DNA from: Xenorhabdus nematophila ATCC 19061
Lineage (GTDB): Bacteria; Pseudomonadota; Gammaproteobacteria; Enterobacterales; Enterobacteriaceae
DNA: 64,000 nucleotides
NCBI RefSeq assembly: GCF_000252955.1
Contig: NC_014228.1
Span: forward strand, 2,122,005-2,186,004
Reading direction: 5' to 3'
The notes under the pieces: generated by a model
The model's database searches: none
What the model saw: the letters and a program-made list of their open reading frames with translations, nothing else
What the model was told of the DNA's origin: nothing
Shown here: positions 5,146-9,670 of the stretch, piece after piece
How the letters are laid out: each line of letters starts with the position of its first letter
Numbering within the stretch: position 1 is the first letter of the stretch
Made by a program: the position numbers and the translations under genes

Positions 5146-5586
5146 TTAATCTCTTAGTTCGGCTATTTCTATTGGCTTGTGGAAACGTAAATGTTCATCA
5201 ATAGCCATAGGAATTAACCAACGCAAATTGTGGATAACATTATCGGGTAACGCATTGGTTTCATAGATACTGACAATCTCTTTTTCAATAGATTTGGCAG
5301 AATAAACCCGATCATCGTATGTATAGAGAAAATTTACCTGATAAACATCAGGGCGGGTTAATACGGTAAATAATTTCCATTCATCAGGCAGTGTTTCAAT
5401 TCCGGCTTCTTCAGCAAATTCTCTTGCCATTGCTTGTTGAGGTGTTTCGCCTGTTTCTATTTTTCCACCGATACCGTTGATTTTCCCTTCCTGCCAACTG
5501 GGCTGTAATTTAGAAATGAGTGATACATGTTTTTTGTCTTTGGAGAACATAAACCCGGTTACATATTTAATCATTAACTTTCTCAC
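5146..5586 (-). CDS. Nudix hydrolase
   Basis: This 146-residue protein has a complete Nudix box, GGKIETGETPQQAMAREFAEEAG (5' G, REFAEEAG core), at about residues 40-62. Nudix enzymes hydrolyse nucleoside diphosphate-linked compounds, and the acidic RExxEE core binds the catalytic Mg. It starts 2 bp after the stop of the adenylosuccinate synthetase-like gene, so it is the last gene of a tight minus-strand operon. Its neighbours suggest it acts on a nucleotide intermediate or removes a damaged by-product. The substrate cannot be read from the sequence. Confidence 0.85.
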   Translation of the reverse strand: MRKLMIKYVTGFMFSKDKKHVSLISKLQPSWQEGKINGIGGKIETGETPQQAMAREFAEEAGIETLPDEWKLFTVLTRPDVYQVNFLYTYDDRVYSAKSIEKEIVSIYETNALPDNVIHNLRWLIPMAIDEHLRFHKPIEIAELRD

Positions 5587-5588
5587 TT

Positions 5589-6851
5589 TTATTCTTGAAC
5601 TATTAAAGTCTGATTTCTGTCTGGCCCATGTGAAATATATTTGATTGGGATCCCAGCATAATCTTGAATAAAAGAAAGGAAGTCAATGAGTTCAGAAGGT
5701 AATTCTGACAGATGTGTATATGACTCATTAAGTATTTTCCAGCTTTTAAATGTTTTATAGATGGGTTTTACTTTATCCAGTTGCAGCAAAGCGTTATCAC
5801 AGCAGACGGGTTCACCGTCAATTTCATATGCAATAGCAACTTTTATTTCTTCTAGTCCGGCAAGAACATCAACATTGGTGATGGCTAATTCTGTGACACC
5901 GTTAAGTTTTACCGCATGTTTTATTAAACATAAGTCCAACCAACCGCAGCGTCTTGGTCTTTTTGACACTGTTCCATATTCATTGCCACGTTCACGAATA
6001 TAATCCGCTTGTTCTGTCAATAATTCTGTCGGAAATGGCCCGTTGCCGACACGGATCATATAGGCTTTCATCACACCCACAATGTGCATTTCCTGGGCGG
6101 GTATACCTATCATGGCAAAACAGCTTTGAACCAGTGTCTGATATGCTACAGTATAAGGGTAAGTTCCAAAGCTATTATCTAAAAAAGTAGCCTGTGATGT
6201 TTCAAGGAGAATATCATCCCCTGAATGAAGTAACTCACGAACGGCTTCATTAGTAAATGTGAAATAAGGTTCTATTTGCTTCCCATACTGATGAGTTTTT
6301 TCTAACATTTCTTCAAAATCTAGCGCCGAATTGTCATTAAAAACATGATTAATCTGCTTTTCTCTAATACCCCAAAGAAATTCTAACTTACTTCTTAATT
6401 TCTCTTTGTCTAAAGTATCAATAAGCCGAATACCATGCCGATTAGATTTATCTTCGACACAAGCACCGACACCGACACCCACTGAACCTATTTTATTCTT
6501 ACCTTTATATTTTTCTGAAGCTTTATTCAATTCTGCATGTAATGGTAATACGATGTGGCATCGTGGATCGATAAAAATATTGGAATGGATATTTTCTCTT
6601 CGTATGAAATCAATTTCTTTAACCAGTACATGAAGGCTAATTAATGCACCTTGACAGATATAGAGGTTCTTTTTATTGAGTGATGCGGGTAATTGAGAAA
6701 ATGATCCTCTTATATTACCATGTTGAACGCAATGACCTGCATTCGCTCCACCATTGAATCTGGCGATGTTATTTACATTGCCAGATAAGTAATCAACGAA
6801 CTTTCCTTTTCCTTCATCTCCAAATTGGAGTCCGACAACTGAAATCAGCAT
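5589..6851 (-). CDS. Divergent adenylosuccinate synthetase (PurA paralogue)
   Basis: This 420-residue protein has the adenylosuccinate synthetase fold. Housekeeping PurA couples IMP and aspartate using GTP. The GTP P-loop GDEGKGK (residues 11-17, catalytic Asp12) and the catalytic His in NAGH (His40) are retained, and the C-terminal GPDR block is present. The IMP-binding loop is rewritten: the usual TTGRGIGP is SVGVGVGA at residues 123-130, EGAQG is ETSQA at 217-221, and the TTGRRRR segment is VSKRPRR at 295-301. Loss of the phosphate-contacting Thr and Arg suggests a different acceptor. Lying in an operon with HisA-like, PRTase and HAD genes, it is unlikely to be the cell's purA. It could be a biosynthetic enzyme or a resistance copy of the target. 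Confidence 0.88.
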   Translation of the reverse strand: MLISVVGLQFGDEGKGKFVDYLSGNVNNIARFNGGANAGHCVQHGNIRGSFSQLPASLNKKNLYICQGALISLHVLVKEIDFIRRENIHSNIFIDPRCHIVLPLHAELNKASEKYKGKNKIGSVGVGVGACVEDKSNRHGIRLIDTLDKEKLRSKLEFLWGIREKQINHVFNDNSALDFEEMLEKTHQYGKQIEPYFTFTNEAVRELLHSGDDILLETSQATFLDNSFGTYPYTVAYQTLVQSCFAMIGIPAQEMHIVGVMKAYMIRVGNGPFPTELLTEQADYIRERGNEYGTVSKRPRRCGWLDLCLIKHAVKLNGVTELAITNVDVLAGLEEIKVAIAYEIDGEPVCCDNALLQLDKVKPIYKTFKSWKILNESYTHLSELPSELIDFLSFIQDYAGIPIKYISHGPDRNQTLIVQE

Positions 6852-7025
6852 AAATATATTTTCTTCTTTTGTAAGGTTATTAAATTAAATTAAATTAAAT
6901 TTGATTTATGGATATTCTTTTGTTTGATTTTATTTAATGCGATAGATTAAATGAAAAATTAACTTTGTTATAAACTCTTCCATTTAGGAAATGAATGACT
7001 AAATAATTTTCTCAATACGCTTTAT

Positions 7026-7685: not shown

Positions 7686-7706
7686 AATGAATTCCTTTAT
7701 TTCAAA

Positions 7707-8891
7707 CTAACAATTTTTACGCGCTGAACAGGTAGGGCATTGATGTGCCAGCATCCTGAATGCGTCAATAGGGTGTTTATGTTTCTCAGATGTCTGAGTT
7801 ATGAACTCTGATAAAAAATCCAGTGATTTTGTTGCCCATGCCGCATCTGCCAAGGTGTCATGCAGAACAGATAAGATATTGTATGAATAATTAACCCAAT
7901 CAGCGGTCGTTGTACGGGCGTGTTTTCCATCCGTAATGAGTTGATCAAGTATATTATTCAGCACCTTATGATGCCTGAAACACCAAGGCGTCAAGACATC
8001 CAACGTTTCAGGATGAAATACGCGGTCAGAGTATCCATATACTCGGGTACGCAATAATTTCTCCCAATGTAATTCAACCGCTCGTGCTTTTGGGCGTATT
8101 TCAGTCTGGGTCATGACCAGATCGATAGCCTGATGGAGAGTATCTCCGGTGCCACAATTGTCATCAATAATCGTGACTGGCTGCGTTAATGGAATTTGGC
8201 GGCCCCAAATTTGATCACTCTTGCAGGATGTATCATCGTAGCGTGAAACTTTCACTAAATTCAGTTCGCAATCCCACATTACGGCGGTTATCGCCGCTGC
8301 CGCAGCACCTCCCAGCATAATTCCAACGACGGAGGAGTTCGGACAGGCATCAATCTGTGCCGCTGCTAACGTCAGCAGGTGATTATCGCCTTCAATATAT
8401 GTTCTGGCTGAGTGATGTTCTGTCGATGAAGGCAGTTTCAAATCATGGAATAAAGAACTCGAGAAGCCGAATGGACGACCGGTTAATGACGAACAGATGA
8501 CTTTGGCACATTCTTTAACCCCATCAATAAATGGCACAATATCTTCATTAACAACCTGCGGAGCACTTAACAGGGTATCGATAATCCGCAGTAATTTCAC
8601 CAGACTATGATCCGCCAATACATATTTTGACGCAGTCGCGCATTGATTGTCTGTGCATTGCAATTGAGCAATCAGATGGGTGTATTTTTTTACTGTTGCC
8701 AGTAATTCACCGCAAGTTTTTTGCTCATAGTAAGCAAGGCCACGAGAGCTGAGAAATTCGTGGTTCTCTGTAAATAAGCCAGGAATTTCTAGCAATTCTG
8801 GCATTAAATAGCGGGTAGTGGGTTCGCCACGCAAGTCACCCAATAAACCAACAGAACGAAGATCGACGACAGGAGAAAAAAATTCAGACAT
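7707..8891 (-). CDS. Phosphoribosyltransferase domain protein
   Basis: This 394-residue protein has a type I phosphoribosyltransferase core. The PRPP-binding loop is VTIIDDNCGTGDTL at about residues 239-252, preceded by a VVGIMLGGAAAAA segment typical of the PPi loop region. Long flanking regions before and after the core, and a C-terminal CPTCSARKNC that could bind metal, are not found in the housekeeping purine or pyrimidine PRTases. I do not recognise a named family. It begins 2 bp after the HisA-like stop. With an Amadori-type isomerase next door it could make or use a phosphoribosylated amine, but the direction and base are unknown. Confidence 0.82.
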   Translation of the reverse strand: MSEFFSPVVDLRSVGLLGDLRGEPTTRYLMPELLEIPGLFTENHEFLSSRGLAYYEQKTCGELLATVKKYTHLIAQLQCTDNQCATASKYVLADHSLVKLLRIIDTLLSAPQVVNEDIVPFIDGVKECAKVICSSLTGRPFGFSSSLFHDLKLPSSTEHHSARTYIEGDNHLLTLAAAQIDACPNSSVVGIMLGGAAAAAITAVMWDCELNLVKVSRYDDTSCKSDQIWGRQIPLTQPVTIIDDNCGTGDTLHQAIDLVMTQTEIRPKARAVELHWEKLLRTRVYGYSDRVFHPETLDVLTPWCFRHHKVLNNILDQLITDGKHARTTTADWVNYSYNILSVLHDTLADAAWATKSLDFLSEFITQTSEKHKHPIDAFRMLAHQCPTCSARKNC

Positions 8892-8893
8892 CC

Positions 8894-9670
8894 TCAGAAC
8901 CTCGGCGCTTGAGTTGCCGCAAGTGCATCTTCAAGAGAAATCTTGCCGATATGTAATGCCTGACCAAGAATAGCACCTTCAATGCCTAAATTAGACATAC
9001 CTGCCAAAGTACAGAGATCATCAATGCTTGATACTCCACCGCCGGCAACGACTGGTGATGATGTTTTTTCGCGGACTTCACGCAAGAGGGTAAAATTTGG
9101 TGAACTCATCATACCGCCTCGTTCAACATCGGTGACGACGTAACGCTGACAGTCTTGTTTGTTGAGGCGCTCAAGGACATCCCAGAGATTTCCGTTGCTC
9201 ACATTCCATCCATGAGTTGCCAACTGATAGCCTTCTGGTGTGCATTTGACATCAAGGGCAATCGCAATCTTGTCTCCATATTCTGCAATAGCGCGGGCAC
9301 ACCAATCTGGTTTTTCTAATGCTGCTGTGCCTAAATTAACGCGTTGGCATCCGGTGGCTAGTACTCGTTGCAAGATCTCTTCATCTCTGATGCCGCCGCA
9401 CACTTGCACATTAATATCGACAGCATTGATGACATCAGCAATAAGGTGGCTATTGGAACCCCGTCCTGATGCAGCATCAAGATCCACAACGTGTATCCAC
9501 TTTGCCCCTGCGTTTTGCCAGGCCAGGGCAACTTCTGCGGGAGTCCCTAAAGGTCTCCGTAACGTTGAACTTTCACCACGCGTTAACCGTATCGCAGAAT
9601 TTGATGTCATGGCTGTTCCATCAACAATATCAACGGATGGGAATATTTCGAATGTTTCCGTACTGATCAT
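8894..9670 (-). CDS. HisA/PriA-like phosphoribosyl isomerase, first gene of a biosynthetic operon
   Basis: This 258-residue TIM barrel matches HisA/PriA, which carry out the Amadori rearrangement of N-phosphoribosyl substrates. The catalytic aspartates are in place: PSVDIVDG (Asp14) and IALDVK (Asp140), with the second phosphate-binding GGG at residues 210-212. The loop after YVVTDV, normally RDGT or KDGT, reads ERGGMM, and there is a short insertion after VDIVDG. No other his gene is nearby, so it is not the histidine operon hisA. Being first in a five-gene operon, with a 571-bp AT-rich upstream region, it is probably a pathway-specific isomerase. Its sequence has a PriA flavour. Confidence 0.87.
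   Translation of the reverse strand: MISTETFEIFPSVDIVDGTAMTSNSAIRLTRGESSTLRRPLGTPAEVALAWQNAGAKWIHVVDLDAASGRGSNSHLIADVINAVDINVQVCGGIRDEEILQRVLATGCQRVNLGTAALEKPDWCARAIAEYGDKIAIALDVKCTPEGYQLATHGWNVSNGNLWDVLERLNKQDCQRYVVTDVERGGMMSSPNFTLLREVREKTSSPVVAGGGVSSIDDLCTLAGMSNLGIEGAILGQALHIGKISLEDALAATQAPRF

What the first reader, a model, noticed from the sequence alone, without database searches (positions are those of the whole stretch)
5146..9670. Five-gene operon that reads like a dedicated pathway to a nucleotide-like metabolite
A HisA/PriA-like isomerase, an unassigned phosphoribosyltransferase, a HAD phosphatase, a divergent adenylosuccinate synthetase and a Nudix hydrolase are all on the minus strand, three of the four junctions only 2-21 bp. 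The domain families are seen directly. By analogy with HisA and TrpF chemistry, one can infer: attach or use phosphoribose, Amadori rearrangement, GTP-driven amide or amine formation, dephosphorylation. No his or pur genes are nearby, and the operon interrupts core genes (ycgN to ldhA). I know of no named natural product pathway with exactly this set; that is recollection, not a search. It could yield a nucleoside or C-nucleoside antimetabolite.
Basis: partly seen in the sequence, partly recalled or inferred. Interest (0 to 1): 0.8.

Follow-up and report, generated by a model that had tools for sequence, protein, structure and literature searches.

The report
Five-gene nucleotide-like metabolite operon
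A conserved block of five enzyme genes in insect-pathogen symbiont bacteria looks like a small, self-contained pathway built from remodelled histidine- and purine-making enzymes, and probably makes an as yet unidentified nucleoside-type compound.

Summary
Observation confirmed: five minus-strand genes (HisA/PriA-like, phosphoribosyltransferase, HAD, PurA-like, Nudix) at 5146-9670. The genome (Xenorhabdus, inferred) has separate hisA, hisF and purA. The same genes in the same order occur in 5 of 5 named genome loci (Xenorhabdus, Photorhabdus, a MAG), in differing surroundings; a congener shows the empty site (insert about 5.0-5.1 kb). Two enzymes are remodelled. In the HisA-like clade (32 of 121 rows) the catalytic Asp175 of PriA is Gly, Ser81 is Cys and loop 1 is six residues longer; in the other 89 rows none of this holds. 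The PurA-like protein keeps catalytic residues but lost Thr129, Thr239, Thr300 and Lys331. HisA-like and phosphoribosyltransferase genes probably share a Streptomyces lavendulae contig; PurA-like and HisA-like both occur in Providencia. Best reading: a horizontally spread specialised pathway to a nucleoside/nucleotide-type metabolite. PriA recruitment into nucleoside antibiotic clusters is known (AdeK), so the kind is known; none of ten open-access paper searches turned up this set. Product and reaction order are inferred; a self-resistance role for PurA stays open.

The parts
8894..9670 (-). HisA/PriA-like TIM-barrel protein (258 aa), first gene; PriA-derived clade with Asp175->Gly, Ser81->Cys, Arg143->His and a 6-residue insertion in loop 1
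   Evidence: residue roles from PMC13055916
7707..8891 (-). phosphoribosyltransferase-fold protein (394 aa) with PRPP-type loop IIDDNCGTGDTL and an extra helical region (about residues 60-165)
   Evidence: PRPP-loop reading recalled
7026..7685 (-). HAD hydrolase (219 aa), motif I DWNGT; no other match to this protein in the genome at E <= 0.001
6852..7025 (.). 174-bp gap of 18% GC between HAD and PurA-like; no Rfam match
5589..6851 (-). PurA-like GTP-dependent ligase (420 aa), a paralogue clade distinct from housekeeping PurA
5146..5586 (-). Nudix hydrolase (146 aa) with an intact Nudix box
   Evidence: box pattern as printed in PMC6112128
9671..10124 (.). AT-rich (23% GC) region upstream of the operon; presumed to hold its promoter, but consensus promoter matches in the region are no more than in shuffles
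5030..10124 (.). insert relative to the empty site of congener G010, where window 5029 and 10125 have one base between them; in other congeners homology on the right begins earlier (10048 in G021, 10093 in G009), so the right edge lies between about 10047 and 10124
   Evidence: L055, L058, L062
5096..5124 (+). strong inverted repeat with a T run between ycgN and the operon (the T run is on the + strand side)

Best explanation
A horizontally spread five-gene cassette encodes a small specialised pathway to a nucleoside/nucleotide-type metabolite (probably an antimetabolite). SHOWN: gene content, conserved order, distinct residues, an empty site in a congener, differing neighbours. INFERRED: the phosphoribosyltransferase joins phosphoribose from PRPP to a base or amine; the PriA-derived barrel, which keeps the residues that bind a ProFAR-like two-phosphate substrate but has a rebuilt loop 6, rearranges that adduct by altered chemistry; the PurA-derived enzyme uses GTP to activate a carbonyl and put in an amine; HAD removes the phosphate to release the product; Nudix hydrolyses unwanted di/triphosphates or takes a tailoring step. 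Order and product are not established.
For: Same five genes and order in 5 of 5 loci; ORFs of 120 aa or more around the operon are not shared between the window (first 20 kb), L006, L007, L008/L009 and L010, only L008 with L009 (L007 has under 0.8 kb upstream); empty site in a congener. Second copies beside housekeeping hisA and purA. HisA-like: 32 of 121 rows with Gly/Cys/long loop, 0 of the other 89. ProFAR-binding R85 and T105 kept in 32 of 32, W145 and T170 in 30 of 30 with residues there, R19 in 26 of 32. PriA paralogue AdeK of the adechlorin cluster has the same Ser81->Cys and Arg143->His (PMC13055916). PurA-like residue pattern in 21 of 21 rows. PRT fold. S. lavendulae P0015 and P0157 share a longest contig of 94,761; P0041 and P0159 share 78,185.
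Confidence: 0.6

Rival explanations
1. The PurA-like gene is a self-resistance copy: the other genes make an inhibitor of adenylosuccinate synthetase (hydantocidin-like in action) and this copy is insensitive.
For: It keeps Asp13, Lys16, Asn38, His41, Arg143, Gln224, Arg303, Arg305 and Asp333 yet changes neighbouring pocket residues; it scores above the cut-off of one of two main NCBIfam PurA models (PRK01117 416 against 402; TIGR00184 389 against 395.6); not found for S. lavendulae.
Against: A PurA-like member occurs in Providencia together with the HisA-like clade, and on a contig length shared with it (78,185), so it seems to travel with the pathway; the changed residues include ones that IMP itself should need (recalled). 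Hydantocidin has a six-carbon sugar skeleton (recalled), which PRPP plus an Amadori step would not give.
Confidence: 0.2
2. The operon makes or removes a signalling or anti-phage nucleotide rather than a secreted antimetabolite.
For: Patchy distribution, insertion at different places, Nudix and PRTase parts; the Nudix matches PADLOC candidate PDC-S07 (E 3.4e-8, 31 bits).
Against: No PADLOC match at E <= 0.01 for the other four; no match to the PRT in the phage or plasmid collections.
Confidence: 0.1
3. Histidine-shunt version: PRT plays HisG, Nudix plays HisE (PR-ATP to PR-AMP), and the HisA-like acts on a ProFAR-like adduct made from an altered adenine nucleotide, as proposed for adechlorin.
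For: Two-phosphate binding residues of PriA conserved; AdeK precedent; the best fold matches of the PRT include purine PRTases, along with PyrR and orotate PRTases.
Against: No HisI-like cyclohydrolase in the operon; PRT resembles type I PRTases, unlike HisG (recalled); Asp175 lost.
Confidence: 0.15
4. Redundant or decaying copies of ordinary histidine and purine enzymes without a new role.
For: Broken copies in some relatives.
Against: Conserved five-gene order; strict clade-specific residues; a phosphoribosyltransferase without close housekeeping kin (17 hits; none of them a named housekeeping enzyme).
Confidence: 0.05

Closest known systems
AdeK and the adechlorin / 2'-amino-2'-deoxyadenosine cluster (Actinomycetota; PMC13055916)
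   Same: A PriA paralogue recruited beside the normal copy into a nucleoside cluster, with Ser81->Cys and Arg143->His
   Different: AdeK complements a hisA mutant and the paper calls Asp11 and Asp175 conserved; here Asp175 is Gly and loop 1 is longer. That cluster has HisG and SAICAR-synthetase homologues and a halogenase; none is among the five genes here.
Formycin A cluster (PMC8724604)
   Same: A second set of purine enzymes, including a PurA homologue, is used in nucleoside assembly
   Different: Formycin uses ForT (beta-RFAP-synthase-like), PurB/C/H-like enzymes and pyrazole genes; none is among the five genes here.
Tubercidin cluster (PMC6112128)
   Same: Phosphoribosyltransferase (TubE) plus a Nudix hydrolase (TubG) that dephosphorylates at the end
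   Different: The paper proposes that PurA is borrowed from primary metabolism; no HisA/PriA-like gene is named in the passages I saw; its deazapurine genes are absent here.
Photorhabdus ADG operon adgA-E (PMC9239236) and 4'-thiothymidine cluster (PMC12691670)
   Same: Nucleoside-antibiotic gene clusters in the same bacterial group
   Different: Different genes: puromycin-like oxidation/amination genes, or a radical SAM enzyme.
Actinobacterial PriA (PDB 1vzw, 2y88)
   Same: Fold, 256-259 bits by phmmer, Asp11, Asp130 and the ProFAR-binding residues
   Different: Asp175Gly, Ser81Cys, Arg143His, insertion of six residues in loop 1

Membership tests
PriA (bifunctional HisA/TrpF isomerase) | Catalytic Asp11 and Asp175 | tested here: not met
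   Asp11 kept, Asp175 is Gly in the window and in 32 of 32 clade rows; catalytic roles from PMC13055916
PriA (bifunctional HisA/TrpF isomerase) | NCBIfam TIGR01919 score at or above cut-off | tested here: not met
   293.7 bits against a cut-off of 306.45
HisA (histidine pathway) | Score above the HisA equivalog cut-offs | tested here: not met
   TIGR00007 187.9 against 228.95; a separate hisA next to hisF exists
HisA (histidine pathway) | ProFAR isomerase activity | not testable with these tools
   needs complementation or an assay
AdeK / adechlorin cluster | HisG and SAICAR-synthetase homologues beside the PriA paralogue | tested here: not met
   Neither family is among the five genes
Adenylosuccinate synthetase (PurA) | Family match and catalytic Asp13, Lys16, His41, Gln224, Arg303, Arg305 | tested here: met
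   (E. coli numbering and roles recalled)
Adenylosuccinate synthetase (PurA) | IMP-phosphate residues Thr129 and Thr239, Asp-loop Thr300, guanine Lys331 | tested here: not met
   Val, Val, Val, Asn in 21 of 21 rows; roles recalled
Type I phosphoribosyltransferase | Fold and PRPP-binding loop | tested here: met
Nudix hydrolase | GX5EX7REUXEEXGU box | tested here: met
   Window and 5 of 5 relatives
PurZ (Z-genome synthetase) | NCBIfam NF038379 score above 300 | tested here: not met
   99.4 bits; a PHROG of phage PurA-like proteins does match, 324.5 bits
ADG-type operon | Homologues of pur10, pur4, pur7 and pur3, one of which aminates the sugar | tested here: not met
   No aminotransferase or dehydrogenase family among the five; gene roles from passages of PMC9239236
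Hydantocidin pathway | Published hydantocidin biosynthetic genes | not testable with these tools
   34 papers hold the word, 4 with 'biosynthetic gene cluster'; by titles and abstract beginnings none describes the genes (listings only)

The most novel reading that the evidence does not exclude
A new nucleoside class: a PriA barrel that has lost its catalytic Asp175 performs a non-Amadori reaction (for instance a C-N to C-C shift or ring closure) on a phosphoribosyl adduct made by a new PRTase, and a PurA-derived ligase with a rebuilt pocket adds an amino acid or amine to it. The same core (PriA-derived barrel plus PurA-like and/or PRT) would then be spread among Xenorhabdus, Photorhabdus, Providencia and a Streptomyces, and perhaps Vibrio, as one pathway family.
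Probability: 0.3. Interest if true: 0.85.

Novelty: new variant of a known kind. Interest (0 to 1): 0.6.

Why it matters
Nematode-symbiotic bacteria are a productive source of antibiotics against Gram-negative bacteria, and nucleoside pathways without PKS or NRPS genes are easily missed by genome mining. If right, five genes suffice to test a new nucleoside pathway directly in a laboratory strain, and the HisA-like enzyme offers a natural experiment in how a well-studied barrel changes chemistry after losing a catalytic acid.

Tried and rejected
Hydantocidin pathway: considered because its phosphate inhibits PurA (recalled); set aside because its sugar carbon skeleton does not follow from PRPP and an Amadori step; kept only as a mode-of-action rival. 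Published nucleoside clusters of Photorhabdus (ADG, 4'-thiothymidine): different genes. Other collections: no match to the PRT in plasmids or phages, none to 3991 bases of the operon in E. coli genomes. HisA-like in plasmids at E <= 1e-40: 3 records, all actinobacterial and under 60% identity. PurA-like in plasmids: 64 records, all under 60%, best listed 37%; in phages: 20 records, best about 38%; not of this clade. Rfam: 0 matches at E <= 1 in 4900-10300. Promoter scan: 13 found against 19.7 in shuffles, so no support.

The surroundings of the Vibrio cholerae, Providencia and Streptomyces relatives could not be fetched: P0017 in 394 genomes of the order hit only the window's own genome; P0050 likewise, 1 of 394; HisA-like P0161 in 392 genomes of the family: own genome plus 4 of one other genus; alignment A2 in 369 genomes of the class: only the own genome; viral contigs: none confirmed. 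(ydbH, 178 genomes) was meant to single out a Providencia genome and failed. In the tree the row HisA_own is a wrong ORF of that locus and HisF_own is a long branch; no conclusion rests on either. One AlphaFold job of two was used; the HisA-like protein was not modelled.

Rows left out: one search compared L006-L010 and L012; L012 (G008, 4.2 kb) is too short for all five genes, shows four (PurA-like cut off at its edge) and is not in the 5 of 5. One search used 20 of the 41 hits P0018-P0058 plus all 74 of P0059-P0132; its only full housekeeping PurA is this genome's own. One search used all 120 listed HisA hits (of 5428 under the threshold); two of its 32 Gly rows (P0155, P0156) have an internal deletion next to the site, so 30 are informative for Asp130-Thr170. 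The trees used subsets (39 and 35 rows).
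Full report

Conservation and mobility. A search of genome contigs with the PRT gave five loci, named Photorhabdus bodei, Xenorhabdus stockiae, X. innexi, X. szentirmaii and an Enterobacteriaceae MAG. All five genes occur in the same order and strand in 5 of 5. Identity to the window is 60-69% for PRT and 78-91% for the other four. 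Neighbouring ORFs of 120 aa or more are shared only between L008 and L009. In congener G010 the window positions 5029 and 10125 have one base between them; in G021 and G009 homology on the right starts at 10048 and 10093, so the insert is about 5.0-5.1 kb. Several other congeners have unrelated sequence of up to about 1.3 kb at this site, so it is a variable place. GC is 0.390 for 5030-10124 against 0.409 for the window. Of the 12 congener stretches compared, 11 show none of the five genes there (G001 carries the operon elsewhere) and G007 keeps a 90-residue HisA-like fragment. All 30 genus genomes have ycgN, but only 12 of the other 29 were compared.

The HisA-like enzyme. Its closest solved relatives are actinobacterial PriA. 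Of 120 listed hits plus the window, 32 rows have Gly where PriA has Asp175, and all 32 also have Cys for Ser81 and a loop 1 six residues longer; the other 89 have Asp, no Cys at 81 (80 Ser, 7 Gly, 2 Thr) and the short loop. The 32 include Xenorhabdus, Photorhabdus, S. lavendulae (P0157), Providencia (P0161, P0196) and unnamed proteins. A tree of 39 rows places the two sets on two sides of one branch (support 91/81, 100% of 200 bootstrap trees; the outgroup rows are unreliable). PMC13055916 (section 27 whole, sections 21 and 28 first parts, passages elsewhere) names Asp11 and Asp175 as catalytic, Arg19, Arg85, Thr105, Trp145 and Thr170 as needed for ProFAR, and Ser81, Arg143 and His50 for PRA. 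The window keeps the ProFAR set and loses Ser81 and Arg143, as does AdeK of the adechlorin cluster; but it also lacks Asp175. An acidic residue at position 173 in 28 of 30 informative rows may be a replacement, so loss of isomerase activity is not shown. PMC4462073 (passages) had set aside a P. luminescens sequence, Q7N8D1, as an outlier in building PriA profiles; that it is this gene is a guess.

The PurA-like enzyme. 21 of 21 rows of its clade keep Asp13, Lys16, Asn38, His41, Arg143, Gln224, Arg303, Arg305 and Asp333 (E. coli numbering, recalled, mapped on the genome's own PurA) but have Ser128, Val129, Val239, Val300, Ser301 and Asn331. The functions of these residues are recalled. The housekeeping PurA of this genome, and the two PDB sequences aligned, keep Thr at 128, 129, 300 and 301. 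Those four positions are also changed in 73 or 74 of 74 more distant hits, so these changes belong to a wider group; Asn331 is nearly specific to the clade (21 of 21 against 1 of 74). The clade stands on a long branch (100/100, with one distant row inside). Named members among its hits: Providencia, Pectobacterium, Enterobacter ludwigii, Serratia symbiotica, Photobacterium, Vibrio cholerae, Shewanella, Caballeronia.

Which genes belong together. S. lavendulae P0015 (PRT, 43%) and P0157 (HisA-like, 65%) have the same longest contig of 94,761 bases, so they are probably on one contig. P0041 (PurA-like) and P0159 (HisA-like) share 78,185. Providencia names appear for both PurA-like and HisA-like. 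V. cholerae names appear for a PRT (P0017, 39%) and a PurA-like (P0050, 60%), with different longest contigs. Absence of the other genes there is not shown, because each search scored only candidates sharing words and lists were cut.

Mechanism. I read the operon as PRT making a phosphoribosyl adduct, the PriA-derived barrel rearranging it, the PurA-derived enzyme adding an amine at the cost of GTP, HAD dephosphorylating, and Nudix cleaning up or tailoring. Only the enzyme families and the residue changes are shown. Precedents: second Pur set in formycin (PMC8724604, passages), PRTase plus Nudix in tubercidin (PMC6112128, passages), PriA in adechlorin (PMC13055916). Nucleoside clusters from the same bacterial group exist (PMC9239236, abstract and passages; PMC12691670, abstract and outline), with other genes.

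Novelty. Ten paper searches in an open-access library turned up no description of this set among the papers listed; one search listed 15 of 43 papers, and subscription papers are not covered. The kind (nucleoside pathway from recruited primary-metabolism enzymes) is known; the combination and the altered PriA are new as far as I could see.

Noticed in passing
window 5035-5084: At the left edge of the insert lies a dispersed repeat of about 40-50 bp: 32 matches in the genome counting itself. It may have helped insertion or merely sit in an intergenic region.
   Followed up: partly
L063 (G007) 9364-9633: A congener without the operon keeps a 90-residue HisA-like fragment between ycgN and ldhA, so the operon was probably once at the same site there.
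   Followed up: partly
L012 (G008, contig length as in X. budapestensis): Broken copy: an in-frame stop in the PRT; budapestensis HisA-like proteins P0155/P0156 are 212 aa with an internal deletion.
   Followed up: partly
P0059-P0132: A wider group of PurA-like proteins, mostly unnamed, has Leu129 in 72 of 74 and His in 51 of 74 at position 224, the position of the Gln that contacts IMP (role recalled): possibly another PurA subfamily.
   Followed up: no
L006 4990-6330: In Photorhabdus bodei a transporter-like ORF (MATE-like by eye) lies upstream on the same strand, about 0.9 kb from the HisA-like gene.
   Followed up: no
PRT of the five loci L006-L010: PRT diverges faster (60-69% identity to the window) than its four partners (78-91%), which could reflect changing substrate.
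   Followed up: no
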